Shown: in pieces, positions 6,959-61,789 of the stretch
Numbering within the stretch: position 1 is the first letter of the stretch
Layout: each line of letters starts with the position of its first letter
Assembly (NCBI GenBank): GCA_900315845.1
Contig: OOHK01000006.1
Span: 62,001 to 126,000, forward strand
Source: Candidatus Avelusimicrobium luingense
GTDB lineage: Bacteria; Elusimicrobiota; Elusimicrobia; Elusimicrobiales; Elusimicrobiaceae
Length of the DNA stretch: 64,000 nucleotides
Direction: 5' to 3'
The notes under the pieces: model-generated
Told to the model about the DNA's origin: nothing
What the model saw: only the letters and a program-made list of their open reading frames with translations
Databases searched by the model: none
Made by a program: the position numbers and the translations under genes

Positions 6959-6964
6959 TACAAT
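6959..6964 (+). promoter_or_regulatory. -10 hexamer of a probable leaderless transcript
   Basis: TACAAT is followed by exactly 6 nt and the ATG at 6971, with no Shine-Dalgarno sequence. Transcription would begin at or next to the A of the start codon. Confidence 0.5.
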
Positions 6965-6970
6965 AAAAAT

Positions 6971-7567
6971 ATGAAAGCATTATTATATATCCACGGAAAA
7001 GGCGGAAACGCCGATGAAGCCGCATATTACAAATCGCTCTTACCAAATTATCACGTCGTCGGTTTAGATTATCACGCCACTACCCCGTGGGAAACGAAAG
7101 ACGAATTGCTGTCATATTATCATTCTTTGGCACGGAAATACGCAAGCATCAGCATGATAGCAAACAGTATCGGAGCGTACTTTGCCATGAACGCGCTGGG
7201 AGCGGAAAAAATCGAGCAGGCCTTTTTCATTTCGCCGATAGTAGATATGGAAGGACTGATTTCCCGTATGATGAGTGCCGCACAAATTACGCCGGAAGAA
7301 TTGGAAAAGAAACAAGAAATTCCGACTGCTTTTGGGGAAACGCTGTCTTGGAAATATCTTTCGTATGTAAAATCACATCCGCTTATTTGGCGCGCGCCTA
7401 CGCATATTTTGTACGGTGAGAAAGATACCCTGATACCTTTAGAAACAATTGCTGCTTTTGCGCATCGTATCCGCGCTTCGCTTACGATTATGAAAAACGG
7501 AGAGCATTGGTTTCACACCGACGAGCAAATGGTTTTTTTGGAACATTGGCTCAAACAATACGTGTGA
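6971..7567 (+). CDS. Small alpha/beta hydrolase (RBBP9/YdeN-like)
   Basis: 198 residues with the alpha/beta-hydrolase layout. YIHGKGGNADEA is the oxyanion-loop region near residue 7. The nucleophile elbow is SMIANSIGAY (AxSxG, Ser near residue 65). The acid is in YGEKDTLIP near residue 150, and the final His is in GEHWFH near residue 178. Substrate unknown; cytoplasmic, since there is no signal peptide. A leaderless start is likely. The gene stands alone, convergent with the kinase gene, with only 29 bp between stops. Confidence 0.8.
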   Translation: MKALLYIHGKGGNADEAAYYKSLLPNYHVVGLDYHATTPWETKDELLSYYHSLARKYASISMIANSIGAYFAMNALGAEKIEQAFFISPIVDMEGLISRMMSAAQITPEELEKKQEIPTAFGETLSWKYLSYVKSHPLIWRAPTHILYGEKDTLIPLETIAAFAHRIRASLTIMKNGEHWFHTDEQMVFLEHWLKQYV

Positions 7568-7596
7568 AACAAATTGATTTTCAATTTTTTACAACT

Positions 7597-8892
7597 TTAT
7601 ATTTCTTGTGCTAATTTGGCAAGGCCAACCAAGGTTTCGTCTGTTTCGGCAGATAAGCATACCGACATAGCCAATTCTTGCTCAAAGAATTTAGCCAACG
7701 CGGGAAGTTTGGCTAATTTGCCGCCGCTTAAAAGCAATTGTTTTCTGCGAGGAGCAAAGCAATCGGCCGCCTGAATATATTGTTGGGCAAAAGATCGGAA
7801 TAATTCGGCCCACAAGACAGGCTCCTTCAAATCAGTCAACGACAATCCGGTTATACCGCCGCCGTTCGTATAATTCCAAGCATCTTGAAAAAAGCCCAAA
7901 TTAAACCGCCCTGATGCTTGTTGAATTTTCTCCAACGGAACTTCCGTAAAACATTTCCACCCGTCTTTACCGGTTAATGTATGATAAAAGTCTATCAAAG
8001 CGGTCAAAACCCGTCCTGCCGGGATATGGGTAATGGTTTGCAATTCAAGCCCGTTTATAAAGTGTCGGCGCTCGGTATCCGAGGTGTTGGGTGCTTGCGT
8101 GCAAATGGCAGATACCTGTGAGCCCGTACCGATATTGAAAGATAACGTTTCCAACGTATTTCCCGCACCGAAAACGGCACATTGATGATCGCCGATAGCC
8201 GTATATACGGGAATATCCCGGTGGTTGATGGTCACTGTTCCGGCGGGAACGGTTTGCGTGGAAACGGTATTAAATACAATATCGGTCACTTTACCTTCCC
8301 GACGCAAAAAAGCACACATATCTTCATCGGGTTGTGCTGACGAAAAACCGATCATCCCGCTTCCTGCGGCCATAGTAATATGCACTCGGTCGGCCGGACG
8401 GCCGATAAGTAACAGGGCTTCGGGCAGAGAAAGCACTTTAATGTAATCGGTAGGATATAAGCGTAAATAATCTAAAATTTTAACAACCGGAAAACAACTG
8501 CGTAAGCGCATACCGGTTTTTTCTTTAAACGTGGTGCCAAAAGCCCCGGCGAACAATTCCCAAGAACTCGGCCCCGCTTTGTGGGGCAACCGGGCGCGTT
8601 CGTCTTGCCAACTGATATATTCGGTAAGCGGTTGGTGGTGTTTATCACACAACACAAATCCGTGCATTTGGCTGCACACAAAAATCCGTTTGAAGTCCTG
8701 CGAAGCGTATAATTTGCATATTTCCGAAAAATCGCGCCAGAGTCCCGCCAAAGGAATTTCAAAATGGGTATCGTGGCAAACGGCAGGAGTGCACGGACGG
8801 CTTTGCACGTTTTGTATCTGTCCGGTAGTATCATCTACCAAGGCCGATTTAATGCGCGTGGCGCCAAAATCCAATAGCAAACTATATGACAT
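7597..8892 (-). CDS. FGGY-family carbohydrate kinase (sedoheptulokinase-like?)
   Basis: 431 residues of the FGGY sugar kinase family, with the sugar-binding N-domain and ATP-binding C-domain. LLDFGATRIKSALVDD is the first phosphate motif near residue 5, SQMHGFVLCD the sugar-site region near 83, then YISWQDERA. IGDHQCAVFG and FNIGTGSQVS lie at the hinge, and LLLSGGKLAKLPALAKF near the C-terminus is the adenosine motif. The arrangement resembles sedoheptulokinase-type members more than glycerol kinases, but substrate assignment from family alone is weak. ATG at 8892 is preferred over TTG at 8895 because GGAG lies 6 nt upstream. It overlaps the cyclase gene by 11 nt and is the last gene of the SDR-cyclase-kinase operon. 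Confidence 0.8.
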   Translation of the reverse strand: MSYSLLLDFGATRIKSALVDDTTGQIQNVQSRPCTPAVCHDTHFEIPLAGLWRDFSEICKLYASQDFKRIFVCSQMHGFVLCDKHHQPLTEYISWQDERARLPHKAGPSSWELFAGAFGTTFKEKTGMRLRSCFPVVKILDYLRLYPTDYIKVLSLPEALLLIGRPADRVHITMAAGSGMIGFSSAQPDEDMCAFLRREGKVTDIVFNTVSTQTVPAGTVTINHRDIPVYTAIGDHQCAVFGAGNTLETLSFNIGTGSQVSAICTQAPNTSDTERRHFINGLELQTITHIPAGRVLTALIDFYHTLTGKDGWKCFTEVPLEKIQQASGRFNLGFFQDAWNYTNGGGITGLSLTDLKEPVLWAELFRSFAQQYIQAADCFAPRRKQLLLSGGKLAKLPALAKFFEQELAMSVCLSAETDETLVGLAKLAQEI

Positions 8893-10030
8893 CAAATTCT
8901 CCGTGCATACAAGTTAGCAATTCTTGGATCAACGTCTCATTTACGTCCAATTTGACAAATACCGTTTCTCCCGGTTTTTTAATAAATACAAAATTAACGG
9001 CATTGCCAATACTCTTTTTATCTTTAAGTAACAACGAAGGCAACTCGTTGACAATGTTTTTTGACAGCCGGGCCGTTTGAAATAAATTCCGTGCCAAACG
9101 GCGGATAGCGTCACAATCTTGTTGGGAAAGCAACCCGCGGCGGCGGCTCATTTCGTTGACGACAAGCACCCCCATCGTAACGGCCTGCCCATGCGGAATC
9201 GCGTAGTCCGATAAAACTTCAATAGCATGCCCTAGCGTATGCCCGTAATTCAGGCTTTTGCGCAGATTAAGTTCAAATTCATCTTTTTCCACAATTTGTT
9301 TTTTTACGCCAAGAGCCCCTAAAATTAAATACCGGAAAGACTCAAAATTATTGACTTCCCCGTCGGCAGATACATATTTGGAAAAGCGGGCTAACAATTC
9401 CGGTCCGCCTGTAATAAAAAGTTTTAGAATTTCCCCCAAGCCGGATTTGATTTCCCGCGCATGCAACGTACGCAAAAAGGCCGGACAAATAATCACTTCG
9501 CGTGGGGCCGAAAAAAGGGCCAACTGATTTTTTGCTTTGTGATAATTGATACCGGTTTTCCCGCCGATGCATGAATCACACATGGAAAGCAATGTCGTCG
9601 GAAAAAACCGCCATGCAATTCCGCGTTTATATACGGCCCCCACAAAAGCCCCGATATCTTCGGTTACCCCGCCACCGACGACAACAAGAGTTTCCCCTTT
9701 ACCAAATCCGTTTTTTTCCAAAAAACCGAGCGCTTGTTCCACTCCGTTATGCAACGTTTTGAATTCTTCATTGGCCTGCACGAACATGACGCGTTTTTCG
9801 TCTATGTGCGAATCGGCAAGATACAAGTTCCATACATTTTGGTCAATCAGTAACAGATTTTTCGGATTTTCGTCCATCATCCGTTGGATAAGTTCAGCGG
9901 GATGATCTGTTTGGGGCAACAAAACCCGGTAATCCCGGGGAACAGAGCGGACGACAAAGGAATCGCTTTCCAAAAAAGCGGAATCAAAAGAAAATGCTTC
10001 GTTTTCTACGGTAAATTGATAGGTACTCAT
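8882..10030 (-). CDS. Sugar-phosphate cyclase (3-dehydroquinate synthase superfamily)
   Basis: 382 residues. The NAD-binding loop is VVVGGGVTEDIGAFVG, followed by FFPTTLLSMCDSCIGGKTGIN. All three zinc ligands of the superfamily can be placed: Glu in SGLGEILK, His in LNYGHTLGHAIE and His in IPHGQAV. The substrate loop reads KNQLALF where AroB usually has KNLIGxF, and the N-terminus is longer than in most AroB proteins. With a sugar kinase and an SDR in the same operon, and no aro gene nearby, it may make a cyclitol (valiolone-type or related) instead of dehydroquinate; AroB itself cannot be excluded. It overlaps the SDR gene by 4 nt (ATGA) and the kinase gene by 11 nt. Confidence 0.8.
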   Translation of the reverse strand: MSTYQFTVENEAFSFDSAFLESDSFVVRSVPRDYRVLLPQTDHPAELIQRMMDENPKNLLLIDQNVWNLYLADSHIDEKRVMFVQANEEFKTLHNGVEQALGFLEKNGFGKGETLVVVGGGVTEDIGAFVGAVYKRGIAWRFFPTTLLSMCDSCIGGKTGINYHKAKNQLALFSAPREVIICPAFLRTLHAREIKSGLGEILKLFITGGPELLARFSKYVSADGEVNNFESFRYLILGALGVKKQIVEKDEFELNLRKSLNYGHTLGHAIEVLSDYAIPHGQAVTMGVLVVNEMSRRRGLLSQQDCDAIRRLARNLFQTARLSKNIVNELPSLLLKDKKSIGNAVNFVFIKKPGETVFVKLDVNETLIQELLTCMHGEFDVI

Positions 10031-10704
10031 ACATGCTGGAAGCCTCCCGCCATAAATCCGCCGTCCACCACAATATCTTGGCCGGTAATATATTGGTTTT
10101 GCTCACTACATAAAAAATAGGCTACGCGCGCGATATCTTCCGGCGCTGCTAAATGCCCAAGCGGAATTTGACGAGCCAATGTTTCTATCATTTGCGCAGT
10201 ATTATTCTTTTGCGTCATGGGCGTCATGACAAACCCCGGGGACAGCGTGTTGCACAAAATACCGTGCGGGCCCAGTTCCAACGCCAACGTTTGAATCAGC
10301 CCGTTCATAGCATGTTTAGACATCGCATACGCGGCCCGCCCTTCGCGGCTGATAGAACCATACAAAGAAGATATACCCAAAATATATCCTTTCTTTTGCT
10401 GTTCAAATTGTTTGCGTAAATGCGCCACTAAAGTAGCAAAACTGGCCGTATTAATTTGATAAGTTTTTTGGATTTCTTGGTTGGTCAGTTGCCCGATCGG
10501 AGCCGGATCGTTATGTCCCGCACAAAAAATCAGGGCGTCCACCGGTGAGGTAAATTTCTCCATATAAGAAACTATGGCTTGCGAATCAGATAGATCCAAT
10601 TCCCGGCTACGCGGAGCCAAGACCGTGTACCCTTGTTGAATAAAAAGCGCTTTTATAGCACTGCCGATAGCCCCGCCACCGCCTAACAGGAATAAAGTTT
10701 TCAT
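10027..10704 (-). CDS. Classical short-chain dehydrogenase/reductase
   Basis: 225 residues with a Rossmann fold. The nucleotide-binding loop is GGGGAIGSA at residues 8-16, then LIFCAGHND (the NNAG position) and catalytic Ser in ISSLYGS. The active-site pair is YAMSK, and the C-terminus VDGGFMAGG is typical. It is an NAD(P)-dependent oxidoreductase whose substrate is likely the product or precursor of the adjacent cyclase. GGAGGATACT precedes the ATG. It is first of three overlapping genes (4 nt overlap with the cyclase), so the three proteins should be made together. Confidence 0.87.
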   Translation of the reverse strand: MKTLFLLGGGGAIGSAIKALFIQQGYTVLAPRSRELDLSDSQAIVSYMEKFTSPVDALIFCAGHNDPAPIGQLTNQEIQKTYQINTASFATLVAHLRKQFEQQKKGYILGISSLYGSISREGRAAYAMSKHAMNGLIQTLALELGPHGILCNTLSPGFVMTPMTQKNNTAQMIETLARQIPLGHLAAPEDIARVAYFLCSEQNQYITGQDIVVDGGFMAGGFQHV

Positions 10705-10771
10705 AGTATCCTCCCAGTGTTACTCACCTTTATTTTAGCAATTAAAGTCATACAAATCCTAGTAGTAAGTG

Positions 10772-11260
10772 TTATTTTTCAAAAGCGATGCGAGGCATAG
10801 TATCCTGAACCACATGGATGATACCACAACGCACAAATCCCAATTTTAACAGTAAATTTTGCATGATTCGGTTATCGGGATGAGTATCCATGCGCAAGTG
10901 TTTACACCGTTGATAACACCAATCAATACAGAACGCGCCTATCCCTTTTACGGAGCCATCCCCCGCTATACGATGGATCACACCGTACGGGCTATCATTT
11001 TGCCATTTTCCGTCTGATATTACAGCATACGTTGGCTCTATATCTTTGCCTTGATTAAAAAAGAAAGTTCCCACAATACGCCCGTTATGTTCGCAAACAT
11101 AACTGTGTCCGGTGACTATATCTTGTTTTACGAGGGAGGACGGCGGCCAAGAATCACGCCATTGGAATGGGTTACCGCTTGCGACCATAAAGGCCCGCGC
11201 CGATTGATATATTTCCAATAAGCGCGGCAAATCAACAAGGGTTGTTTTCCGTATTTGCAT
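10772..11260 (-). CDS. GNAT-family N-acetyltransferase
   Basis: 162 residues of the GNAT fold, which transfers an acyl group from acyl-CoA to an amine. MQIRKTTLVDLPRLLEIYQSAR is the usual beta1-alpha1 start. HRIAGDGSVKGIGAFCIDW is a degenerate acetyl-CoA loop, and RMDTHPDNRIMQNLLLKLGF is the classic C-terminal motif (DTHxDNxxMQxLLxKLGF). ATG at 11260 is chosen for the AAAGG upstream and because the motif begins there; the open frame extends further (to 11347) without resembling the family. Substrate unknown. Confidence 0.85.
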   Translation of the reverse strand: MQIRKTTLVDLPRLLEIYQSARAFMVASGNPFQWRDSWPPSSLVKQDIVTGHSYVCEHNGRIVGTFFFNQGKDIEPTYAVISDGKWQNDSPYGVIHRIAGDGSVKGIGAFCIDWCYQRCKHLRMDTHPDNRIMQNLLLKLGFVRCGIIHVVQDTMPRIAFEK

Positions 11261-11375
11261 AAAACCTTTTTGATGGTAGCATATCCCCCGCCGGCGGCAA
11301 AGGCCCCATTTACGCGAGTCGTCGGAGACGGACTGCCAACCCGGCAAGATCTTATTTGAAAAAAACTGTTCCGCG

Positions 11376-14580: not shown

Positions 14581-14586
14581 ATTTTA
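14581..14586 (-). promoter_or_regulatory. Extended -10 (TGCTAAAAT) for a leaderless mlaE transcript
   Basis: TGC precedes TAAAAT, which is followed by exactly 6 nt and the ATG of mlaE. No Shine-Dalgarno sequence lies between. Confidence 0.55.
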
Positions 14587-14743
14587 GCAGTTATCAGCGC
14601 AAAATAGAAGTTTTGTATTTGAGGCCATGGCTTCTTATATAGGGTTCGGCCCGCAAGAGTATCCCCGGCAAGACGAAAGCGGTTGCTATTACGCCAACAG
14701 AATAAGTACAATGTAGTATCATTTTTTATTAGGAGCGCCCCAT

Positions 14744-24836: not shown

Positions 24837-24842
24837 ATTTTA
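24837..24842 (-). promoter_or_regulatory. -10 hexamer for a leaderless rsmF transcript
   Basis: TAAAAT on the reverse strand, exactly 6 nt before the ATG at 24830, with no ribosome site between. Confidence 0.5.
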
Positions 24843-24898
24843 CAATTATTTACTTGTAGAAAAGAGGTTTTTGTATAATAAAACATACGGAGAGATTT

Positions 24899-29080: not shown

Positions 29081-29086
29081 ATTTTA
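29081..29086 (-). promoter_or_regulatory. -10 hexamer (TGATAAAAT) for a leaderless CDF transcript
   Basis: TAAAAT, preceded by TGA, lies exactly 6 nt before the ATG at 29074. Confidence 0.5.
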
Positions 29087-29176
29087 TCACATTAAGATCA
29101 GGCATCCTATTATATAATTCCTTTGCTTGAAATAGATTTTTTTGATAAAATTTCCAAAACAGATAAGGAGAGCAAC

Positions 29177-31530: not shown

Positions 31531-31666
31531 AATTTCTCCTAGTAGTAATGAAGATATTATTATTGTAGCACATTGTACTCAAAAAGTAAGTATTTTTTTA
31601 ACGAGAGTCCTTCCCGACGATAAAAACATCAAAGATGTCCCCAAAAATTGCTACAATATAATTTCT

Positions 31667-34222: not shown

Positions 34223-35041
34223 ATGGTTACCATTTCATATATTCCCGTAAAAACATTTTTATCTAAAAGTAAAATCTCCGGAGTAGATTATGCTATCAAC
34301 CCGTATATCGGTTGCACGCATAAGTGCATTTATTGTTATGCGGAATATATGCGGAAATTTTCCGGACATGAAGAACCATGGGGCGAGTTTTTAGACGTGC
34401 GTACTTGTAATATACCTTTTCGTCCTATCCAATTATTTCATACGAATGTGCTATTAAGTTCGGTAACAGATCCATACAACCCGTACGAAAGAGAATTTCA
34501 AATTACCCGTAACATTCTTAAGCAACTTAGAGATTGCCAAGCCTATGTGCACATTTTAACAAAATCAGCCCTTGTTATACGCGATTTGGATATCCTTAAA
34601 GAACTGGCCAACAACAGCAGCGTCATGTTTTCGTTTTCTTCAGCAGATGAAACTTTTAGAGAACTGGCAGAACCGGGAGCATCGCCGATTAAAGACAAAA
34701 TTGATGCGCTAAAATTACTGCATGAAAACGGCATACGAACCGGCGTAATGATAGCCCCATTTATGCCGGGAATAACCGATTGGAAAGACATTCTTCAGCA
34801 AACACGTCCCTATACAGATTACTATTATGTGGACAGTTTGAATATGCGCCCGGCTTACCAAAAGCGTGTATTAACGTTTATTGAGAATAATTATCCCCAA
34901 ACATTGCCGTTATATATAGATATTTATATGCATAACAACCATACCTATTGGGAAACTCTCTCCCGAGAAATAAAATCCTATGCACTAACAGAAAAATTAG
35001 ATATTTCCGTGTTTTTTTCATCCCCAAAAAAGACAAACTAA
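34223..35041 (+). CDS. Radical SAM protein (SplB/Rv2578c-like)
   Basis: 272 residues. The C-x3-C-x2-C cluster motif is in NPYIGCTHKCIYCYAEYM near residue 36, followed by SSVTDPYNPYEREFQITRNIL, typical of the spore photoproduct lyase-like radical SAM group (SVTDPYQPxE). VHILTKSALVIRDLDIL also fits. The usual GGE loop is absent in this group. Function outside spore formers is unknown. No ribosome site; a leaderless start is possible but not clear. Confidence 0.82.
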   Translation: MVTISYIPVKTFLSKSKISGVDYAINPYIGCTHKCIYCYAEYMRKFSGHEEPWGEFLDVRTCNIPFRPIQLFHTNVLLSSVTDPYNPYEREFQITRNILKQLRDCQAYVHILTKSALVIRDLDILKELANNSSVMFSFSSADETFRELAEPGASPIKDKIDALKLLHENGIRTGVMIAPFMPGITDWKDILQQTRPYTDYYYVDSLNMRPAYQKRVLTFIENNYPQTLPLYIDIYMHNNHTYWETLSREIKSYALTEKLDISVFFSSPKKTN

Positions 35042-41248: not shown

Positions 41249-41356
41249 AACAATACTCCTTTATTTTATACTATCTCATAAATTTAAAAATCAATTATTA
41301 TTATACCAAACAACCCAATGATTTCAAAAAACACCCGCTTTTTCACGCAAATTTAC

Positions 41357-41362
41357 TATAAT
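41357..41362 (+). promoter_or_regulatory. -10 (TATAAT) of a leaderless DUF2207 transcript
   Basis: TATAAT, 6 nt, then the ATG at 41369. The second paralogue has the same TATAAT-N6-ATG arrangement. Confidence 0.6.
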
Positions 41363-41368
41363 TTTGCT

Positions 41369-43177
41369 ATGAAAAAAATTTATTCCCTGTTACTTGTTGC
41401 TTTTCTTCTTCCCACGCTGGGGATAATCTCCAACGCGCAAACGTATGACACGTCGGCAAATGACCCGGAAAAAATCTATCTGTTTGACTCGGATATTACC
41501 GTCCATACAGACGGCTCTATTACCGTCGTTGAAACCATTACCCTTAACGTCAAACACCAAAACATTAACCGCGGTATTTACCGCGATATTCCGTTCTCGC
41601 TCAAAGAATCGATAGAGCCCCTATCCTTAACGTTTGACGGAGTTTCTCACCCATTTTTCATTGAATTTAAAGGCAAAATCCAACGCATTAACTTCGGAGA
41701 TGATAATTATATCCCGTGGGGCAAGCACACCTATACCTTTACCTATAAATTTACAGGCGCGATTGATTTTTACCAAAATCACGATGAACTTTACTGGAAC
41801 GTTACCGGAAGCGATTGGGCTTTCTCCATTGACAAAGCCCGCGTGCACGTAACATTTCCCGAACAAGTACAAATACAAAAAGACGGTATTTCGCTCTATA
41901 CCGGGTACAAAGGCAGCAAAGCCAATTATACCGAAGAAGTAGGAAAACTGACTTACGAAACGACCCGCCCGTTATCCCCGCACGAAGGAATGACCATTGC
42001 TATTCCGTTCTATAAAGGCGTTATACAAAAACCGTCTTCTTTTCAATCATTAAGGCTCTTTTTTGCGCCTGCTTCCATATTGGCGCTACTGTTATTAGTC
42101 GGTCTATTTATCTATTTTATCAGTACGTGGATTATGGTAGGGATAGATCCGTCTTATTTACTTGTACCTCAATACGAGCCGCCGCAAAACATATCGCCGG
42201 CGTTTATGCACTATTTATGTACACAAGAATTGGACACAACCGCCATAGCCTGTATGCTACTGGATTTGGCGATGAAAGGGTATATAGAAATTAAAGAAAA
42301 CAAATCTTTTTTCGCCATGGATAAAGCCACCATTATTTTAAAGAACCGCGATACACTGGATTTACCGGAAGAAGAAGCCGGGTTGATTACGCTTTTATTC
42401 CCGCACGGTACTGATACCTTCAGTTTAGGGCCATATACCGCCCAACGATGGAAACCTTTCCACAAAGGCATAGAAAAATTGTTTAGGCAAAATGCAAAAG
42501 AATATATCATCAGCCATTCATCTTATATCAAAAAAGCCGTTATCGGTATGGTGATATTGGGGCTTGTACCGCCTTTATGTTTAGGGAAAATAGGATTTCC
42601 GCTTATATTTATCAACCTACACTTTGCGGTATTTTTTACACTGACTTCCATTATTCATTCCCGCATAGGTCTTAAAGTTATATTAGGGCTTGCAATCACG
42701 GCATTTTACTCTGCCTTTTGGATTCCGATGTCCTTGCAGGCGGGGCCGGCCGCATTGATTTGTTCGCTATCCTATGTTTTAGGAATGTGGGGGCTGTCTT
42801 TCTACGTAACGCTCATTCGCAACGTAACCGAACGCGGCAAGGAACTCTTTGCGCATATTTACGGTTTTAAGAAATATATGAAAACCGCCGAAATTAACCG
42901 TGTATATGCATCCGACCCGACCAAAGCGGAACAAATTTTCTGTGCGTTTTTACCGTTTGCGTTTGCTTTTGGATTAGAAAACAAATGGATGAAAAAATTT
43001 GAAGGGGTGCTTTCCAAAGCCATTATAGATAAATGCACATCAGCGGCCGGAGGCATGCGGTTTATATCCTCCGGAGGTCTTTCCAAAAGTGTCAGCAGCG
43101 GCGGCGGTGGCGGCGGAAGCCACGGCGGCGGTCATGCCGGCGGCGGTCACGGTGGTGGTGGCGGCGGCGGAAGATAA
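41369..43177 (+). CDS. DUF2207 membrane protein (copy 1)
   Basis: 602 residues. Signal peptide (LPTLGIISNAQ), then an extracytoplasmic DUF2207 domain (about 20-220; FDSDITVHTDGSITVVETITLNVKHQ, NRGIYRDIPF, NYTEEVGKLTYETTRPLSP). A transmembrane segment near 235-260, a cytoplasmic winged part, and a second hydrophobic group near 385-490 follow. The Gly/His/Ser-rich tail ends GGGGGGGR, a hallmark of many DUF2207 proteins. Function unknown. I set the start at 41369, where the signal peptide begins; no ribosome site, -10 at 6 nt. Confidence 0.85.
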   Translation: MKKIYSLLLVAFLLPTLGIISNAQTYDTSANDPEKIYLFDSDITVHTDGSITVVETITLNVKHQNINRGIYRDIPFSLKESIEPLSLTFDGVSHPFFIEFKGKIQRINFGDDNYIPWGKHTYTFTYKFTGAIDFYQNHDELYWNVTGSDWAFSIDKARVHVTFPEQVQIQKDGISLYTGYKGSKANYTEEVGKLTYETTRPLSPHEGMTIAIPFYKGVIQKPSSFQSLRLFFAPASILALLLLVGLFIYFISTWIMVGIDPSYLLVPQYEPPQNISPAFMHYLCTQELDTTAIACMLLDLAMKGYIEIKENKSFFAMDKATIILKNRDTLDLPEEEAGLITLLFPHGTDTFSLGPYTAQRWKPFHKGIEKLFRQNAKEYIISHSSYIKKAVIGMVILGLVPPLCLGKIGFPLIFINLHFAVFFTLTSIIHSRIGLKVILGLAITAFYSAFWIPMSLQAGPAALICSLSYVLGMWGLSFYVTLIRNVTERGKELFAHIYGFKKYMKTAEINRVYASDPTKAEQIFCAFLPFAFAFGLENKWMKKFEGVLSKAIIDKCTSAAGGMRFISSGGLSKSVSSGGGGGGSHGGGHAGGGHGGGGGGGR

Positions 43178-43247
43178 ACCCGTCCTACCAATTTATAATA
43201 AAAGAAGTCTGCCAAAAATACAGACTTCTTTTTGCTTACGGATTTAC

Positions 43248-43253
43248 TATAAT
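43248..43253 (+). promoter_or_regulatory. -10 (TATAAT) of a leaderless DUF2207 transcript (copy 2)
   Basis: TATAAT, 6 nt, then the ATG at 43260; same layout as copy 1. Confidence 0.6.
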
Positions 43254-43259
43254 CTTGTT

Positions 43260-45212
43260 ATGAAAAAAATTTATTCTCTGTTACTTGCTGTTTTTTTTCT
43301 TCCCGCGTTGGGGATTGTGTCCGGCGCGCAAACGTATGACACATCGGCAAACGACCCGGAAAAAATCTATCTGTTTGACTCGGATATTACCGTCCATACA
43401 GACGGCTCTATTACCGTTGTTGAAAACATTACCCTTAACGTCAAACATCAAAACATTAACCGCGGTATTTACCGCGATATCCCCGTTTCCCGCACAGAAA
43501 AAGTGCTACCTGTTTCGTTGCAATTTGACGGACAAGAACATCCGTTTTTTGTAGAGAAAAATAACAGCATATTAACTATCAATTTCGGAGATGATAATTA
43601 TATCCCCGTCGGCAAACATACCTATACCTTTACGTACACATTTATCGGAGCCGTTGATTCTTATAAGGACTACGACGAGCTCTATTGGAACGTTACCGGA
43701 AACAATTGGGCTTTCTCCATGGATAAAGCTCGCGTGCACGTAACATTTCCCGAACAAGTAAAAGTACAAAAAGACGGTATTTCGCTCTATACAGGGCCCA
43801 AAGGCGGCAAAGCCAATCATACTGAAGAAGTAGGAAAACTGACTTACGAAACAACCCGCCCGTTATCACCGCGCGAAGGGATGACCATTGCTATTCCGTT
43901 TGATAAAGGGGTTGTCTCTATTTTATCGGCAAACATGCTGGCGGATAAATTTCGTGCCGAGCGGATTTTTTGGTTTCGCTTACTCCGCGCCCCGTTACGT
44001 ATTGCGATCATCCTCGGTGTGTTTTTAATTTGCTTTATGGCAATTACTTGGTGGACGAAAGGCCGAGATCCCTTTTATACGCTCGTTCCGCAGTATGAAC
44101 CGCCGCGCGAGTTTTCCCCCGCTTTTATATACTATTTAGAACACTTACGAATCAATACCGCCATGCATACGTGTTCGCTACTTCATTTGGCGCTTAACGG
44201 ATATATAAAAATCACTCCTTTAGACCGCAACAAAACCAAACTAACCCGGTTACGCCAAGATACGGACGGCTTACCCGTTGAAGAAAAAATTGTGCTTAAG
44301 CAGTTATTTCCCAAAGATACCGAAACGCGCACGTTGGCGCCGTACTCAGCCGAAGATATTTTTCACCACATTGACACCAAAACCGACGACGAATTTCAAA
44401 AGATGGCCGAACCTTTCATCAATCAAAATACTCCCTATGTAAAAACGGTATTTCGTCTTTTGTGTTTATTAGGATTGTTACCCGGATTAGCGGGCATACT
44501 GGGAGCCGTTACATTGATTTACAATCCCGGCGTTTGGGAAATGTTTAACGATACCGGAGTATTTATTTCTTCAATTGACGAAGGCAACATTACGCTGCTT
44601 ATTTTACCGTTTATCGGGGCGATATTCTTATCCCTGTTTAATATTGTTTTAGCAACTATGCCGAAACAGATTCAACCGAAATGGGGTATCCTTCCGATGT
44701 TGTTTCCTACCCAACTATTTGCTGCGATACTTATTGCTATGCAAAACACGCGTTACAGTATATTTTGTCAACTAATATTTGTTAGTATCGTGCTTTTGTT
44801 TAGTTTATATACGTATCTCATACGTAACGTAACACAGCAGGGCCAGCAACTCTATACCGAATTGTATGGGTTCAAGCATTATTTGCGCGTTGCCGAAACG
44901 TACCGCACTTTAGCGTCCAACCCACAAAATGCGGAAACTATTTTCTGCAATTTTTTGCCTTATGCCTTTGCGCTGGGGTTAAAAAACCAATGGATAAAGA
45001 ATTTCAAAGGTATTTTATCACAAGCGGTATTGGAACGCTGCACAGAAGCAGCCGGCGGGACTCATTTTATCACAAGCGACTTATCCCGCGCCGTTTCCAG
45101 CGCAAGCAGTAGCCGCCCCAGTGAAAGTAGCCGTAGCAGTGGCGGTGGCGGGAGCCACGGAGGAGGAAGTTCCGGCGGCGGTCACGGCGGTGGTGGCGGC
45201 GGCGGAAGATAA
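43260..45212 (+). CDS. DUF2207 membrane protein (copy 2)
   Basis: 650 residues, a tandem paralogue of the preceding gene. The first ~50 mature residues are almost identical, also at DNA level; the middle (after the first TM) is clearly diverged. Tail: a Ser/Arg-rich stretch, then GGGGSHGGGSSGGGHGGGGGGGR. ATG at 43260 is chosen over upstream in-frame codons, which would read backwards through the previous Gly-rich tail. Leaderless start likely. Confidence 0.85.
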   Translation: MKKIYSLLLAVFFLPALGIVSGAQTYDTSANDPEKIYLFDSDITVHTDGSITVVENITLNVKHQNINRGIYRDIPVSRTEKVLPVSLQFDGQEHPFFVEKNNSILTINFGDDNYIPVGKHTYTFTYTFIGAVDSYKDYDELYWNVTGNNWAFSMDKARVHVTFPEQVKVQKDGISLYTGPKGGKANHTEEVGKLTYETTRPLSPREGMTIAIPFDKGVVSILSANMLADKFRAERIFWFRLLRAPLRIAIILGVFLICFMAITWWTKGRDPFYTLVPQYEPPREFSPAFIYYLEHLRINTAMHTCSLLHLALNGYIKITPLDRNKTKLTRLRQDTDGLPVEEKIVLKQLFPKDTETRTLAPYSAEDIFHHIDTKTDDEFQKMAEPFINQNTPYVKTVFRLLCLLGLLPGLAGILGAVTLIYNPGVWEMFNDTGVFISSIDEGNITLLILPFIGAIFLSLFNIVLATMPKQIQPKWGILPMLFPTQLFAAILIAMQNTRYSIFCQLIFVSIVLLFSLYTYLIRNVTQQGQQLYTELYGFKHYLRVAETYRTLASNPQNAETIFCNFLPYAFALGLKNQWIKNFKGILSQAVLERCTEAAGGTHFITSDLSRAVSSASSSRPSESSRSSGGGGSHGGGSSGGGHGGGGGGGR

Positions 45213-45221
45213 AATTTGATA

Positions 45222-45251
45222 AAACTCCCCGGGCTTATGCTCGGGGAGTTT
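45222..45251. terminator. Terminator after the DUF2207 pair and the 36-aa gene
   Basis: Stem AACTCCCCG/CGGGGAGTT; it lies between two converging reading frames and can serve both. Confidence 0.8.
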
Positions 45252-45361
45252 CATTTTTCCGCAACAATAAATTGGTGGCTATATTTTTCCAAATTTTCGC
45301 TTACCCAAAAATCTTCAAACAACTTCCGGGCTTGCGTGGCGTAATCATTTAGAAGTGGCAT
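45251..45361 (-). CDS. Possible 36-aa small protein, divergent from fmt
   Basis: An ATG at 45361 opens 36 codons starting MPLLNDYATQARKLFEDFW and ending in a stop that abuts the terminator at 45251. TATACT lies exactly 6 nt before the ATG, matching the leaderless pattern of nearby genes. The sequence is amphipathic with tryptophan and phenylalanine pairs. It is too short to assign; it could be a small protein or the tail of a lost gene. The shared layout and terminator raise it above chance. Confidence 0.4.
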   Translation of the reverse strand: MPLLNDYATQARKLFEDFWVSENLEKYSHQFIVAEK

Positions 45362-45408
45362 TTTTAGAGTATACAAAAATCGACGCACTATTTGATAAAA
45401 TTAAATAT

Positions 45409-51390: not shown

Positions 51391-52356
51391 TTATTTTTTA
51401 AGCCGAATTTTTACAGAAAATGGATTTTTATCCACAGATTGATAAATTTTTACCTTGCCGGGCTCTGCTCCGGCCAGCACACGGAACACCCCTTGCATGG
51501 GATCCCATGCCAAAAACGGCGGGCTTATCCGTACCGAAACCGGAACATAGTGAAATAGCGAATTATCCGCCAGCACCGCCCAAACACGTAAAGGTATATC
51601 TTTCGGGGCAGATAACGATATATGGTTAAATAATACGTCGGCCTTGAGTGTTTTAAGTTGCACTTGCGCTTGAGAAGCCCACAAATATTGCGTATTAACC
51701 GGATTTAACCAAAACGATGTTGTATCGTCGTAACGCAAAGCAAAATCAGGGCCATAGATTTTACCGTTTTGCTCTAAAACTTGTTGAGCCCGGGCCAGTT
51801 CTTCTTGCGTACCGACCCCTAATATCCGCACCGACGGTACCGGGACATTTTCCCACACATTACCGGGATGAATAAGCGCCACCGCACCGAACAAATTCGG
51901 GTTTTGAGCGACGCGTAGTGCAATTTTAGCCGCGTTTGGCCCTTGTACGGCCAAAATACGGTTTTCCGGGCCGTTTTTTGTTAAATAGTTAGCATCGGTA
52001 TAAGGAAGTATTTCATCCGATAAAAACCGTACAATTTTATCGGCTTTTTGCGTATAATCTTGCTCGGTAAAATTGATTCCCACCACAATAGCCGGATTCC
52101 CTTTTTGATAGGCGGCTACGAAAGACGCATCCTCTTTAGGCACCAATCCCAAGGCTACTATCACCGGATAATTTTGTTTAAGCGGCACGGAATCTTCCGG
52201 TAAGAAAAACGATACCGTATAGGTATTTCCCAACGATTCCGACGGGAAATTCACCATTGTTTCCCGCCCGGGGTGAATAAACAAAAGCGATTCATCTTGC
52301 GCCTGTATTAAGGGCGCGACACACAACAAACACAGTAATAAAAATAGTTTTTTCAT
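51391..52356 (-). CDS. Secreted esterase-fold protein, apparently without a nucleophile
   Basis: 321 residues with a signal peptide (CVAPLIQAQ). The layout resembles esterase D/enterochelin-esterase-like hydrolases: VSFFLPEDSVPLKQNYPVIVALG at the start and YTDANYLTKNGPENRILAVQGPNAAKIALRVAQNPNLFGA in the middle. The elbow reads VQGPNAAKIAL where active relatives have GxSxGG, so Ser is replaced by Asn. It is probably inactive, perhaps a binding protein. The start has TAAAAT at 6 nt and no ribosome site. Confidence 0.65.
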   Translation of the reverse strand: MKKLFLLLCLLCVAPLIQAQDESLLFIHPGRETMVNFPSESLGNTYTVSFFLPEDSVPLKQNYPVIVALGLVPKEDASFVAAYQKGNPAIVVGINFTEQDYTQKADKIVRFLSDEILPYTDANYLTKNGPENRILAVQGPNAAKIALRVAQNPNLFGAVALIHPGNVWENVPVPSVRILGVGTQEELARAQQVLEQNGKIYGPDFALRYDDTTSFWLNPVNTQYLWASQAQVQLKTLKADVLFNHISLSAPKDIPLRVWAVLADNSLFHYVPVSVRISPPFLAWDPMQGVFRVLAGAEPGKVKIYQSVDKNPFSVKIRLKK

Positions 52357-52362: not shown

Positions 52363-52368
52363 ATTTTA
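52363..52368 (-). promoter_or_regulatory. Extended -10 (TGCTAAAAT) for a leaderless transcript
   Basis: TGCTAAAAT, 6 nt, then the ATG at 52356. Same arrangement as upstream of mlaE. Confidence 0.55.
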
Positions 52369-52452
52369 GCATTTGTCCGGCGGAATTGCCTAGTGAATAT
52401 CAATTTAACCCGGCTTGCAATAATGTTATAATAAGTAAATAAGGAGTTATCT

Positions 52453-54442: not shown

Positions 54443-54535
54443 AAATTCTCCTATTAAGTAAGTTTCTTTTATGGTATAAAATAGCCGAGGCGAAAAACAA
54501 GTATTTTTTCATCATAGGAAACGGCTAAAATTTGC

Positions 54536-54541
54536 TATGAT
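54536..54541 (+). promoter_or_regulatory. Extended -10 (TGCTATGAT) for kdsA
   Basis: TGCTATGAT is followed by 7 nt and the ATG at 54549, with no ribosome site. The mRNA is leaderless or has a leader of one base. Confidence 0.5.
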
Positions 54542-56799: not shown

Positions 56800-56808
56800 G
56801 AACTAACT

Positions 56809-57528: not shown

Positions 57529-57533
57529 TTCTC

Positions 57534-57688
57534 GCCGAACGGGCACGCGGCCTTAAACCGCTTTCTGCTTTTTTACTACCTTCCGTCAGACGGTTTGTTT
57601 GTTAGTTTACAACGATTAAATGCCGAACGGGCACGCGGCCTTAAACCGCTTTGTGCCTTTTTACTACCTTCTGTCAGACGGTTTGTTT
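57534..57688. repeat. Tandem pair of 67-bp repeats after lptB
   Basis: Copies at 57534-57600 and 57622-57688 (88-bp period) differ by a few bases. Each holds a hairpin (GGCACGCGG CCTTAAA CCGC in copy 2), and ends with a CNGTCAGACGG segment. The core TAAACCGCTTT resembles the AAACTGCTTT core of the tRNA-adjacent elements. No gene is visible in 57529-57782. Confidence 0.7.
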
Positions 57689-57731
57689 ATAACCATTAGA
57701 AGTCGGATAGGCATTTGGATACAAGGTACAT

Positions 57732-57769
57732 AAAAAAATACCGCTTTGTTTAACAAAGCGGTATTTTTC
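57732..57769. terminator. Bidirectional terminator downstream of the repeats
   Basis: Long perfect stem ATACCGCTTTGTT/AACAAAGCGGTAT with A/T runs; it ends lptB and the converging 57783 gene. Confidence 0.9.
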
Positions 57770-57782
57770 TTTTATAACATTC

Positions 57783-59078
57783 TTACGGAAAAGCAGGTTC
57801 TGTACCATAGTTCCAACATTTGTGCCTTATGGGTACACATTTCTTACAATGCAAGGGATTGGCATGCATGCAAGGCATGGTAGAACGCGTTTCCCGAGTT
57901 GTATAAGAATTCCCTTTATGAGAGATTAAGTTACAAGAAGGCACAATAGGCATTAGTTGGGTAGAGCATTCGCCATTTGTTGCAGCGCCCCAATCTTCAT
58001 AAGTTCTCCAATGCATACACGGTTCATAATCCCACCGCAATGATGAGGTACCCATTCCTTGATTACAGGTTGTATATTCTCTTCTAACGGCCGTTCCTCT
58101 CCATTCAGTGCTTCCTAAAGCCGCCGAACAAGATTTAGTTTGTGCAAACAAAGGCGTATGAGGAGACTCATATACTATACAATGGCTCAAATCTTCATCA
58201 TTTGTCCACGTACAGGGCTCACTGTTACAATTACAAGAAGGAGTCGGTATAGCCTGCCCGCAAACGCCCATAGTCATAGGATCAACTAAACCTGTGGCAC
58301 GGGTAATAAATCTTCCCGGGGCGGCTCCTTGCCAAGACACATATGTAAGGTACGAACCGAACTGTGCGCGAAATTCATGCCCAGTTTCCGGCGAATTAGC
58401 CAACGTCAATACATCTTGTAACGTACAGGCACGAGGTTGAGTCGGGCGAGTGCTTTCCTCACAACCTAAAACCCCACCACACGTTAAATATACAGACTTG
58501 GTTGTACTTTTACCCAATGCTATTTCTGCCCATTCCATCTTACCGGAACTTCCGGAATACGCAGTTTTACAAGAAGGGAATGTCTTTTGGGTAGTACTTC
58601 CGGTTAAACCAAACAATTTTAACGTGCCCGACACATACATCGTATTACTGTTCATACTATATGAATTGCTTATTTGCGGAATATAGACTTTATTAAAAAG
58701 CAACTGGGCCCCCTCACGATTGGTCGAGGAGCCGCCCCCTATTTCCACAGACGGAACTGTTTGTTTAGTAATAGCCAACGTCGTTCCTTCGGGGGCTTCT
58801 AAATTTAATGTCCCGCTTTTCATAATGAATTGACCGGGCGTTGTTCCATTAGCCGCTACCACATTAAGAGCGCGGGTAGAATTAGGCATAGAAGAACTAC
58901 CCAATTCCAACTGACATTCTTGCGAAGTCAAGCCGATATCCATTTGTTGGGCTACATTTACATTGCTATACGATACATACGGTACCGGGAAGTATGTTAC
59001 CATACTGATATTATTTTTTTGCTGGGCAAAACACAATACCGGTAACAATACAAAAAAGAACACAGAAAACTTTTTCAT
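57783..59078 (-). CDS. Cys-rich secreted protein with MVTYFPVPY motif
   Basis: 431 residues. Signal peptide (VLCFAQ), then ISMVTYFPVPYVSYSNVNVAQQMDIG. The middle (about 30-190) is Ser/Thr/Gly-rich and looks like beta structure. The last half has over twenty Cys (CNCNSEPC, CMHANPLHCKKC), likely disulfide-bonded or metal-binding. I know of no named family. The reverse-strand start has AGGAGTG. It may be a surface protein; the association with pilin-like genes nearby is unproven. Confidence 0.65.
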   Translation of the reverse strand: MKKFSVFFFVLLPVLCFAQQKNNISMVTYFPVPYVSYSNVNVAQQMDIGLTSQECQLELGSSSMPNSTRALNVVAANGTTPGQFIMKSGTLNLEAPEGTTLAITKQTVPSVEIGGGSSTNREGAQLLFNKVYIPQISNSYSMNSNTMYVSGTLKLFGLTGSTTQKTFPSCKTAYSGSSGKMEWAEIALGKSTTKSVYLTCGGVLGCEESTRPTQPRACTLQDVLTLANSPETGHEFRAQFGSYLTYVSWQGAAPGRFITRATGLVDPMTMGVCGQAIPTPSCNCNSEPCTWTNDEDLSHCIVYESPHTPLFAQTKSCSAALGSTEWRGTAVRREYTTCNQGMGTSSLRWDYEPCMHWRTYEDWGAATNGECSTQLMPIVPSCNLISHKGNSYTTRETRSTMPCMHANPLHCKKCVPIRHKCWNYGTEPAFP

Positions 59079-59167
59079 ATATTCACTCCTGAAAATAAAT
59101 TATACTTTCCTTAACTTATATTTTAACTAAATTTTACAAAAAATCAATATATTTTTTACAATTCCTA

Positions 59168-59704
59168 CTAGGAAGCGTACGGCGTAGCCCCTTCTGTATA
59201 CAAATCTAACGATTCGCAAACGGCTTTGCTCGACGCAATATCCCCCGGACTATAACAAGCTAGCGAGGCGCCTTTCCCGGCGGTGCCTTTTACATACGGA
59301 TTCCAAATAATATAATCGTATTTACTTTCCGCTCCTGTACGTTTGGCCGTTACACCCGGGCAAGGCGTTCCCGGAATAAGCACTCCGGTAGCATCGTTAA
59401 TAGAATAAGTAAAATCACGTGTCATAATCTTCGTTTCATTACCACTCACAATCGTTGCCGAAGTATGCGCTAAGGTTACAGACAACTTTTGAAACCCTTG
59501 CGGACACACATTATCCACACTACCTGTCCGCCCGGCAGAATACGTATATACAGCATCATTAAATGCTTTTAGGGCTGTCATGGCTTCCGTGGCTCTGGCA
59601 CGCTCTAACGAACGCATATATTGCGGCAAGGCCATGCTAGTCAAAACACCGATAATAACCACCGCTACTAACAACTCCATCATGGTAAAACCTTTTTGAT
59701 TCAT
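59168..59704 (-). CDS. Type IV pilin-like protein
   Basis: 178 residues. Leader MNQKG, cleavage site G|FTMME, helix LLVAVVIIGVLTSMALPQYMRSLERARATEAM. The head has conserved-looking PQGFQKLSVTLAHTS and Cys pairs (PCPGVT, LACYSPGDIASSKAVC). GGAGAAA precedes the ATG. Solitary, 16 bp before dapL in the same direction's downstream position, so it could be read with dapL. Confidence 0.86.
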   Translation of the reverse strand: MNQKGFTMMELLVAVVIIGVLTSMALPQYMRSLERARATEAMTALKAFNDAVYTYSAGRTGSVDNVCPQGFQKLSVTLAHTSATIVSGNETKIMTRDFTYSINDATGVLIPGTPCPGVTAKRTGAESKYDYIIWNPYVKGTAGKGASLACYSPGDIASSKAVCESLDLYTEGATPYAS

Positions 59705-59720
59705 ATTTTCTCCTTAATTA

Positions 59721-60950
59721 CTAAAATTGCAACTGTGCTACACGCAAAGCGGCTTGTTCGGTCAGTACCGCCGTATTAAAGGCGGTTAATCGGAAAAATC
59801 CTTCACCGCATGCGCCAAACCCCACTCCCGGCGTACCGACAACTTGCGCCTCTGTTAATAGTTTATCAAAAAACGACCATGAATCAAGCCCCTTTGGCGT
59901 TTTAAGCCAAATATACGGGGCATTTTCCCCACCGTACGCCGTAATTCCGGCTTTACGCAACGCCGTTAAAATAACACGGGCATTTTGTTGGTAACGACCG
60001 ATCACTTCTTGAATTTGCATGCGTCCCTGTTGGGAATAGACGGCTTGCGCCGCGCGTTGGACAATATACGGCACGCCGTTAAATTTGGTAGTTTGCCGCC
60101 GCAGCCACAATGCATTTAAGGACGCAAGCGATCCGTCCGGCGCGGTGACTTTGACGGCTTTGGGCACCACCGTATAGGCACAACGCGTACCGGTAAATCC
60201 TGCCGTTTTGGAAAACGACCGGAACTCTACCGCCACTTCTTGCGCGCCGTCAATTTCGTAAATAGAGTGCGGAATATCATTTTGTGTGATATACGCTTCA
60301 TAAGCCGAATCATACAAAATAATACTGTGATGTTCGCGTGCATAATCTACCCAGCGTTGCAGTTGTGCTTTGGTAAGTGCCGTGCCGGTGGGATTATTGG
60401 GCGAACACAAATAAATAATATCGGCGTGTTCGGCAGGAAGTTGCGGTGCGAAATTTGTTTCTTCGGTGCAAGGCAAATAAATAATACCGCCGTAACGTCC
60501 GTTTTGGTACATCTGCGTGCGTCCCGCCATGACGTTGGTATCTAAATAGACCGGATAAACCGGATCTTGCAACGCCACTTTGGCAGACGGCGCAAATAAT
60601 TCCTGAAAATTGGCCACATCGCTTTTGGCGCCGTCGCTAACAAAAATTTCATCGGCCGACAGGTTAATACCGCGTGACAAATAATCGCCCTGTAAAATGG
60701 CTTCGCGCAAGAAAGCATATCCTTGTTCCGGGCCATAACCGCGGAAAGTTTCCGCTTGACCCATTTCGTCGCACGCGCGGTGGAGCGCTTCAATAACCGC
60801 GGGGACGAGCGGTTGCGACACATCACCAATACCCAAACTAATTACTTGTTTATCCGGGTGGGCTTCTTTATAAGCGGCTACTTTTTTGGCAATCGTGGAA
60901 AACAAATAACTACCCTGTAATTTAAAATAGTGTTCGTTGGCCGTTGTCAT
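59721..60950 (-). CDS. dapL: LL-diaminopimelate aminotransferase
   Basis: 409 residues, normal length. [57 protein letters not shown] and [18 protein letters not shown] fit DapL. The PLP lysine is in [21 protein letters not shown]. It makes LL-DAP from tetrahydrodipicolinate in one step, skipping the acyl route. ATG at 60950 follows AGGAGA; the longer reading reaches back into dapF. 4-nt ATGA overlap with dapF. Confidence 0.92.
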
Positions 60951-61777
60951 AGTAAAAAATCTCCTGTAAAAACTTCTTGGGCGGGCCCGGTCATCCATAT
61001 ATTTTGTTGTTCGGGCCATGAAATTTGCAAATCACCGCCGTCTAATTTAACGGTAATATCGTTAGCGGTTTTGTGGTTTAATATACATGCTACCGCTGTC
61101 GCACAAGAGCCGGTTCCGCACGCTTGCGTAATACCCGCGCCGCGTTCCCACACGCGCATACGGACGGTGTGCTCATCTAATACTTGCACAAATTCCACGT
61201 TGGTTTTACGCGGGAACAACGGATGCTTTTCCAATTCCGGCCCCCATGTGGATAGCGGCACTTTTGACATATCATCCACAAAAATGACAATATGCGGGTT
61301 CCCCATAGAAACGGCCGTCCCCGTAAAACTTTTTCCGCACGCTTCCAACGTTACGCCAATGGCTTGTTCGGTAGCGTTTCCTTGCATAGGGATTTCCCCC
61401 CGTGTAAGACGGGGTTTGCCCATATCTACGCGCACGAGTCCGCGCGCGGAGTCTATCATTTCGGTACGGATAATCCCGGCCAATGTTTCTAATGAAATTT
61501 GATTTTTTTGGCAACCCAAATGGCGGTGCAAATGTAAAGGCACACAGCGTGACGCATTGCCGCACATCTCGGCTTCGCTACCGTCTGCATTGATAATACG
61601 CATACGCACGTCGGCTTTATCTGACGGCAAAAGCAACACAAGTCCGTCTGCGCCTATTCCTAACCGGCGGTCGCACACGCGGCGCGCCAAGGCAGCCGGA
61701 TCGCTAACGGACAACGCTGTTTTACCGTCTAAAAAAACAAAATCGTTTCCCAACCCGTTATATTTCGTAAAATACAT
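60947..61777 (-). CDS. dapF: Diaminopimelate epimerase
   Basis: 276 residues. Catalytic Cys pair: the first in [15 protein letters not shown], the second in [29 protein letters not shown] starts the protein. It converts LL-DAP to meso-DAP for peptidoglycan and lysine. dapL follows with a 4-nt overlap, so the last two steps are coupled. Leaderless start likely (TAAAAT, 6 nt, ATG). Confidence 0.94.
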
Positions 61778-61783
61778 AATTTT

Positions 61784-61789
61784 ATTTTA
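61784..61789 (-). promoter_or_regulatory. -10 hexamer for a leaderless dapF-dapL transcript
   Basis: TAAAAT on the reverse strand, 6 nt before the dapF ATG at 61777; no ribosome site. Confidence 0.5.

What the first reader, a model, noticed from the sequence alone, without database searches (positions are those of the whole stretch)
6959..61789. Leaderless genes: a -10 hexamer exactly 6 nt before the start codon
TAAAAT-N6-ATG occurs at mlaE (14574), rsmF (24830), cdf (29074), the 52356 gene and dapF (61777). TATAAT-N6-ATG occurs at both DUF2207 genes, TACAAT at 6971 and TATACT at the 36-aa frame (45361). kdsA and fmt have 7 nt. None has a ribosome site, whereas other genes here have strong AGGAG sites. 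Several hexamers are preceded by TGN (extended -10).
Basis: partly seen in the sequence, partly recalled or inferred. Interest (0 to 1): 0.75.

Follow-up and report, generated by a model that had tools for sequence, protein, structure and literature searches.

The report
Leaderless genes in a gut Elusimicrobium
In this uncultured Elusimicrobium-like bacterium roughly one gene in thirteen seems to be copied into RNA starting at its start codon, with no ribosome-binding leader; the arrangement is known from other bacteria, and here it appears as a conserved trait of a group for which my searches found no report of it.

Summary
Confirmed. The window lies in an uncultured Elusimicrobium-like genome (1.46 Mb). 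In the 53% examined, 39 of 749 called starts have TANAAT exactly 6 nt upstream (other spacings 0-10); dinucleotide shuffles give 3.1. A promoter matrix trained only on leadered sites of other genes peaks at 6-7 nt, is depleted at 11-14 and rises again from 15 nt, where SD sites appear. In three species of the genus 24 of 28 orthologues of leaderless candidates have a -10 hexamer 6-10 nt before the start, against 16 of 183 for other genes; conservation covers about 14 bp, AAAWTTGN-TANAAT, and the -35 zone is near background. In 149 genomes of the phylum TATAAT-N6-ATG exceeds TATAAT-N12-ATG 2.2- to 4.1-fold in the window's class and 1.2-fold elsewhere. dapF keeps the layout in 38 of 43 distinct sequences; in four others a -10-like box remains but 24-25 nt with a G-rich tract precede ATG.

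Best reading: leaderless or near-leaderless mRNAs from compact extended -10 promoters that also drive SD-led genes: a known kind, in a lineage where I found no report. Weak points: no RNA data; cdf and rsmF are mostly not leaderless in relatives; ungated pattern counts are much less clear.

The parts
61784..61797 (-). Promoter element of dapF: TAAAAT hexamer 61784-61789, 6 nt before ATG 61777
   Evidence: layout in 38 of 43 distinct upstream sequences, own included
60947..61777 (-). dapF, predicted leaderless (start aligns with residue 1 of its relatives)
14581..14594 (-). Promoter element of mlaE: TAAAAT hexamer 14581-14586, preceded by TGC, 6 nt before ATG 14574
   Evidence: MlaE, Pfam; 4 of 5 sequences, own included
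24837..24850 (-). Promoter element of rsmF: TAAAAT hexamer 24837-24842, 6 nt before ATG 24830
   Evidence: 5 of 12 sequences, own included
29081..29094 (-). Promoter element of the cation-efflux gene (cdf): TAAAAT hexamer 29081-29086, 6 nt before ATG 29074
   Evidence: 2 of 8 sequences, own included
52363..52376 (-). Promoter element of the 321-aa gene at 52356, no Pfam match: TAAAAT hexamer 52363-52368
   Evidence: one orthologue with the hexamer at 7-10 nt
6951..6964 (+). Promoter element of the 198-aa gene at 6971, no Pfam match: TACAAT hexamer 6959-6964
41349..41362 (+). Promoter element of the first DUF2207 gene: TATAAT 41357-41362, ATG 41369 (ORF 41369-43177)
43240..43253 (+). Promoter element of the second DUF2207 gene: TATAAT 43248-43253, ATG 43260 (ORF 43260-45212); this start removes the 89-nt overlap of the longest ORF (43089) with the first gene
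45388..45401 (+). Promoter element of fmt: TAAAAT 45396-45401, 7 nt before ATG 45409
   Evidence: Formyl_trans_N and C; 17 of 19 sequences in the genus, own included
54528..54541 (+). Promoter element of kdsA (DAHP_synth_1 family): AAATTTGC then TATGAT 54536-54541, 7 nt before ATG 54549
31644..31657 (+).
45251..45373 (-). 36-aa frame (ATG 45361) and its TATACT hexamer 45368-45373: possibly the remnant of a leaderless gene that is 418 aa long in one relative

Best explanation
A class of genes in this Elusimicrobium-like bacterium is transcribed from a compact extended -10 promoter (AAAWTTGN-TANAAT, no conserved -35) placed so that RNA polymerase starts on, or within about 3 nt of, the A of the ATG. 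The mRNA then has no leader and no Shine-Dalgarno site, and the ribosome with initiator tRNA must recognise the 5'-terminal AUG. The same promoter motif, 15 or more bp further upstream, stands before ordinary SD-led genes, and the 16S anti-SD is intact, so both modes coexist. Shown by sequence: the motif, its spacing, the two-peaked spacing distribution, its conservation and its taxonomic spread. Inferred: the actual 5' ends and the route of initiation.
For: Peak at exactly 6 nt: 39 of 749 starts, shuffles 3.1. By start codon, TANAAT at 6 nt: 37 of 580 ATG, 0 of 49 GTG, 1 of 98 TTG. A matrix trained only on leadered sites of non-candidate genes finds 35 sites at 6 nt and 11 at 7 nt; best site per gene: 54 genes at 6-10 nt with 0 SD, 3 at 11-14, 192 at 15-59 with 122 SD; 44 of 44 at 6-7 nt start with ATG against 158 of 192. 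Context: 28 of 48 exact candidates have a divergent upstream gene, 188 of 749 overall. Orthologues: 24 of 28 against 16 of 183. In 14 pairs identity is 0.33 at -50..-21, 0.85 at -20..-13, 0.92 at -12..-7. dapF 38 of 43, fmt 17 of 19 in the genus. Class-wide excess over N12. Anti-SD tail intact.
Against: No RNA or protein data. Absence of SD here is partly forced by geometry; one of the 67 candidates does carry an SD match. T at -1 (45 of 48) is not specific: 342 of 531 other ATG starts have it. The 11-14 nt zone holds 9 sites with the independent matrix at threshold 8, so it is depleted, not empty. Ungated counts are weak. cdf and rsmF are mostly not leaderless in relatives and fmt is in 0 of 9 order-level relatives. 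G046, of the same order, has only 6 and 5 of 215 at 6 and 7 nt. My gene caller is home-made and missed the second DUF2207 gene.
Confidence: 0.9

Rival explanations
1. The promoters are real but the start codons are misassigned: translation begins at a later in-frame ATG, with a leader and an SD site.
For: Start prediction is error-prone; both DUF2207 ORFs and fmt have longer mechanical alternatives.
Against: Starts were chosen by coding score, without the promoter, and 48 of 67 candidates coincide exactly with the ATG 6 nt after the hexamer. In dapF and fmt the alignment with relatives begins at residue 1 in nearly all rows.
Confidence: 0.04
2. AT-rich upstream DNA yields chance TA-rich hexamers; there is no special class.
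For: TANNNT has a background of about 21 of 731 at 6 nt; raw pattern counts without genes are weak. Single weak sites such as TAGATT at 34223 may be chance.
Against: 38 observed against 3.1 expected for TANAAT; cross-species conservation with a matched control; the genome sampled from another class, G089, with lower G+C (36%), has 1 of 155 at 6 nt.
Confidence: 0.01
3. A dedicated sigma factor or regulon marks the leaderless genes.
For: Three frames (573, 389 and 204 aa) carry sigma70 regions 2 and 4. Leadered promoters show a weak -35-like excess (29 of 192 against 11-13 in control zones) that leaderless ones lack (3 of 54 against 1-6).
Against: The same 14-bp motif was learned from 169 leadered sites of other genes. 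Pfam scans of 30 of the 59 candidates outside the window (picked by me) and of window genes give mixed housekeeping families.
Confidence: 0.05

Closest known systems
Leaderless (TA-led) genes of Actinobacteria and Deinococcus-Thermus (Zheng et al. 2011, PMC3160421: abstract, passages and section 7 seen)
   Same: A -10-like TA signal about 10 bp before the start codon, coexisting with SD-led genes; TG before the box noted there in several low-GC genomes.
   Different: Lower share here (about 7% by prediction, against around 20% and 40% there); Elusimicrobia is not among the groups listed there; an AAAWTTG element precedes the hexamer here.
-10-motif adjacent to ORFs in Deinococcus radiodurans (PMC12340547: section 11 and passages seen)
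   Same: TANNNT about 6-7 bp before the ORF, conserved among relatives, shown there to act as a promoter with a spacing requirement.
   Different: Nearly one third of genes there; commonest form TACACT there, TATAAT and TAAAAT here; tested by reporters there, sequence only here.
Leaderless transcriptome of Mycobacterium tuberculosis (PMC3898074: passages seen)
   Same: Conserved -10 and no conserved -35; leaderless transcripts for 26% of genes with a primary TSS.
   Different: 5' ends mapped there, predicted here. TGN in 7% of TANNNT promoters there; in 23 of 54 leaderless and 82 of 192 leadered promoters here.

Membership tests
Bacterial leaderless (TA-led) genes | -10-like hexamer at the spacing that puts the transcription start on the start codon, above chance | tested here: met
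Bacterial leaderless (TA-led) genes | mRNA 5' end at the A of AUG | not testable with these tools
   no RNA data
Bacterial leaderless (TA-led) genes | No Shine-Dalgarno site | tested here: met
   0 of 54 genes at 6-10 nt against 122 of 192 at 15-59 nt; 1 of 67 looser candidates has an SD match; partly forced by geometry
Bacterial leaderless (TA-led) genes | Preference for AUG starts | tested here: met
   44 of 44 at 6-7 nt against 158 of 192 at 15-59 nt; TANAAT at 6 nt before 37 of 580 ATG, 0 of 49 GTG, 1 of 98 TTG starts
Bacterial leaderless (TA-led) genes | Layout conserved in orthologues | tested here: met
   24 of 28 against 16 of 183; varies by gene
Bacterial leaderless (TA-led) genes | Coexists with SD-led genes and an intact anti-SD | tested here: met
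   16S tail GGATCACCTCCTTT; SD match in 338 of 682 other genes
Extended -10 promoters without a -35 box | TGN before the hexamer | tested here: met
   23 of 54 leaderless, 82 of 192 leadered; a minority, but the most frequent bases at those positions are T and G
Extended -10 promoters without a -35 box | No -35 signal | tested here: met
   Leaderless: 3 of 54 against 1-6 in control zones; leadered promoters do show a weak excess, 29 of 192 against 11-13. -35 zone identity 0.39 against 0.35 far upstream in 37 leadered pairs
Extended -10 promoters without a -35 box | Use by the housekeeping sigma factor | not testable with these tools
   candidates carrying regions 2 and 4 exist

The most novel reading that the evidence does not exclude
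In the class Elusimicrobia the main promoter is a compact 14-bp element that hardly needs a -35 box. Genes switch mode by short insertions or deletions between an intact -10 box and the ATG, and the leaderless mode is old in the class.
Probability: 0.5. Interest if true: 0.6.

Novelty: new member of a known kind. Interest (0 to 1): 0.45.

Why it matters
It adds a lineage of mostly uncultured bacteria to those predicted to use leaderless expression, and gives a rule, -10 hexamer 6-7 nt before ATG, that corrects start codons in their genomes; here it settles fmt and both DUF2207 genes. dapF across the genus offers a natural series in which a G-rich leader stands between a retained -10-like box and the ATG, a testable record of how genes move between leaderless and SD-led translation.

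Tried and rejected
T at -1 as an initiator signature: dropped as evidence, because 342 of 531 other ATG starts also have it.

A matrix trained on the leaderless starts themselves is circular at 6 nt. I replaced it by one trained on leadered sites of non-candidate genes, and used the first one otherwise only on other genomes.

A special sigma factor: not favoured, since leadered genes share the motif. Ribosomal S1: a 402-aa frame holds three of the six S1-domain matches; no conclusion drawn.

The 36-aa frame: a first search gave nothing below E 0.5, but that set did not hold the fmt neighbourhood, as the empty fmt search in the same call shows. Repeated on 29 fmt loci of relatives, the best hit (19 residues, 47%, E 0.19) lies at the same place and strand in L296, behind TATACT-N6-ATG, at the head of a 418-aa frame. 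That frame's remainder finds no match in the window. So my first rejection was withdrawn.

Results against: ungated counts; G046 shows 6 and 5 of 215 at 6 and 7 nt and 0 and 2 with the G000 matrix, although its whole-genome pattern counts are 63 against 16; N12 is a single control spacing.

Rows dropped: loci whose alignment began after residue 12 or lacked 30 nt upstream, identical upstream sequences, and by title or position L098, L100 and L102-L106; loci L108-L154 were not given. Same-genus dapF matches without a locus were not seen. Pfam was run on 30 of 59 outside candidates. DUF2207, kdsA and the 6971 gene were not compared across species.
Full report
Source. The window is C2:62001-126000 of an assembly of 1,463,713 bp in 8 contigs. 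Of the 23 closest named records for its DapF (L075-L097, 59-73% identity), 21 titles name Elusimicrobium, Elusimicrobiaceae, Elusimicrobiales or Elusimicrobia and two 'uncultured bacterium'; several name rumen, rectum or colon. The window's own name is not given.

Observation. All listed hexamers are present at the stated spacings. Pfam identifies MlaE, RsmF, cation efflux, two DUF2207 proteins and a DAHP_synth_1 protein taken as KdsA, and Fmt. The genes at 6971 and 52356 match no Pfam family at E 1e-5. For fmt, ATG 45409 gives MVKLNTIFFGTPDISV and aligns from residue 1 in most relatives; the longest mechanical ORF starts at GTG 45355.

More than chance. With 749 called genes TANAAT lies at 6 nt before 39, and before 0-10 at any other spacing from 0 to 39. 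Shuffles give 3.13 +/- 1.82 for 38 observed of 731. TAAAAT, TATAAT and TACAAT each peak there (15, 16, 7). Without gene calling the picture is weaker: TATAAT-N6-ATG 32 and N7 21 against 2-14 elsewhere, but TATAAT-N6-GTA, the control, 21; raw TAAAAT and TANNNT show no clear peak.

What the motif is. Aligned at the 48 candidates whose called start is exactly the ATG 6 nt after the hexamer, conservation runs from about -20 to -6: AAAWTTGN-TANAAT and then a purine, with nothing at the -35 position. A matrix trained on 169 sites 15-45 nt before non-candidate genes recovers the same motif and, applied to all genes, gives 35 sites at 6 nt and 11 at 7 nt (threshold 8). Best site per gene, 725 genes: 14 at 0-5 nt, 34 at 6, 10 at 7, 10 at 8-10, 3 at 11-14, 33 at 15-19, 53 at 20-29, 76 at 30-44, 30 at 45-59, and 462 with none. 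The gap at 11-14 nt corresponds to leaders of about 5-8 nt; counting all sites it holds 9 at threshold 8, so it is depleted, not empty. With the other matrix, in three species of the genus: 47 sites at 6-10 nt, 1 at 11-14, 13 at 15-19 (summed; 357, 217 and 151 genes). These species are relatives, so not fully independent.

A -35 box: leaderless promoters show none (3 of 54 with a TTGA-like site in the -35 zone, 1-6 in control zones); leadered ones show a weak excess (29 of 192 against 11-13).

Share. 54 of 725 genes (7%) have their best site at 6-10 nt; 67 of 749 (9%) pass the looser hexamer test. These are predictions.

Conservation. For 28 orthologue pairs (24 genes, so not all independent) of candidates with G034, G029 and G030, 24 have a hexamer at 6-10 nt; for 183 pairs of other genes, 16 do (Fisher p 4e-17). 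Of the 4 misses, 3 show a near-hexamer by eye and 1 has an SD. In the 14 pairs with 6 nt on both sides identity is 0.33 at -50..-21, 0.85 at -20..-13, 0.92 at -12..-7 and 0.52 at -6..-1; the hexamer value is inflated by selection, the -20..-13 value is not. In 37 leadered promoter pairs the -35 zone is 0.39 against 0.35 far upstream; there the motif itself was selected by score.

Window genes across relatives (distinct upstream sequences, own included; loose hexamer at 5-10 nt). dapF 38 of 43: 24 at 6 nt, 6 at 7, 2 at 8, 6 at 9; the other five are 2 with an SD match and 3 'other'. In four of those five (L091, L069, L093, L095) TACAAT or TAAAAT remains, with 24-25 nt carrying GGGAG or GGGGG before the ATG: a change of mode in one direction or the other. 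mlaE 4 of 5. fmt 17 of 19 in the genus and 0 of 9 in the other family of the order. rsmF 5 of 12. cdf 2 of 8, where in most other rows the alignment begins at residue 9-10 and the true start probably lies further upstream, so the cdf comparison is unsure. The loose criterion has a chance rate, for which 16 of 183 (5 spacings) is a guide.

The 36-aa frame. In L296 (relative G004), next to fmt and on the opposite strand as in the window, TATACT-N6-ATG precedes a 418-aa frame whose N-terminus shares LFEDF and little else with the window frame. The window frame may be the remnant of that gene; an intact-looking copy exists in that relative. One relative of 29 loci is thin evidence.

Spread. TATAAT-N6-ATG against TATAAT-N12-ATG in 149 genomes drawn from the phylum: genus 1448 against 354 (30 of 30 genomes higher), other genera of the family 691 against 229 (13 of 13), rest of the order 724 against 287 (14 of 14), rest of the class 303 against 135 (11 of 14), other classes 3413 against 2902 (60 of 78; 4 reach twofold). 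These are ungated counts with one control spacing.

Mechanism. Shown: promoter position and conservation. Recalled: sigma70 polymerase starts about 7 nt downstream of the -10 hexamer, so a 6-nt gap puts +1 on the A of ATG; leaderless mRNAs are bound through the 5' AUG with initiator tRNA. Inferred: that this happens here. The 16S tail is canonical; three frames carry sigma70 regions 2 and 4.

Function. Pfam scans of 30 of the 59 candidates outside the window give SmpB, ClpP, MnmE, a Mur ligase, a cytidylyltransferase, Tgt, CinA, a MutY-like glycosylase (named by me from its domains), TatD, a biotin ligase and others; 2 of 30 match nothing. No matched scan of other genes was made, so no enrichment is claimed.

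Literature. 'leaderless' with 'Elusimicrobi' is held by two papers. The PMC10783764 passages that name the phylum give its anti-SD, not leaderless genes; the other paper was seen in the listing only. Zheng et al. 2011 do not list the phylum among groups with leaderless genes. A search on metagenomes listed six papers, not read. The 2025 Deinococcus paper scanned bacteria broadly, and its supplement, not seen, may include this phylum. The claim is only 'not found in these searches'.

On recount the gene total became 725, the overlap of the DUF2207 ORFs 89 nt, the -35 statement was weakened for leadered promoters, the ungated controls were added, and the 36-aa frame was re-examined.

Noticed in passing
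L031:8766-8842: Two leaderless candidates face away from each other with only 75 bp between their start codons, each with its own hexamer 6 nt before ATG.
   Followed up: no
L069, L091, L093, L095, upstream of dapF: A TACAAT/TAAAAT box is retained but 24-25 nt carrying a G-rich tract separate it from the ATG, suggesting a switch between leaderless and leadered expression.
   Followed up: partly
window 41349-43271: Both tandem DUF2207 genes begin with nearly the same promoter and start (TTTAC-TATAAT-N6-ATGAAAAAAATT): perhaps a duplication that carried its promoter along.
   Followed up: no
780 kb sample, ATG starts: T at -1 is common also before non-candidate ATG starts (342 of 531); unexplained, possibly a translation preference.
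   Followed up: no
window 45251-45361 and L296:197-1453: The 36-aa frame beside fmt sits where relative G004 has a 418-aa frame on the same strand, both behind TATACT-N6-ATG.
   Followed up: partly
L286, L292 (G022 C33): A second, partial rsmF-like match lies about 3 kb downstream of the first in one relative.
   Followed up: no
window 45222-45252: A GC-rich inverted repeat between the second DUF2207 gene and fmt looks like an intrinsic terminator, read by eye.
   Followed up: no
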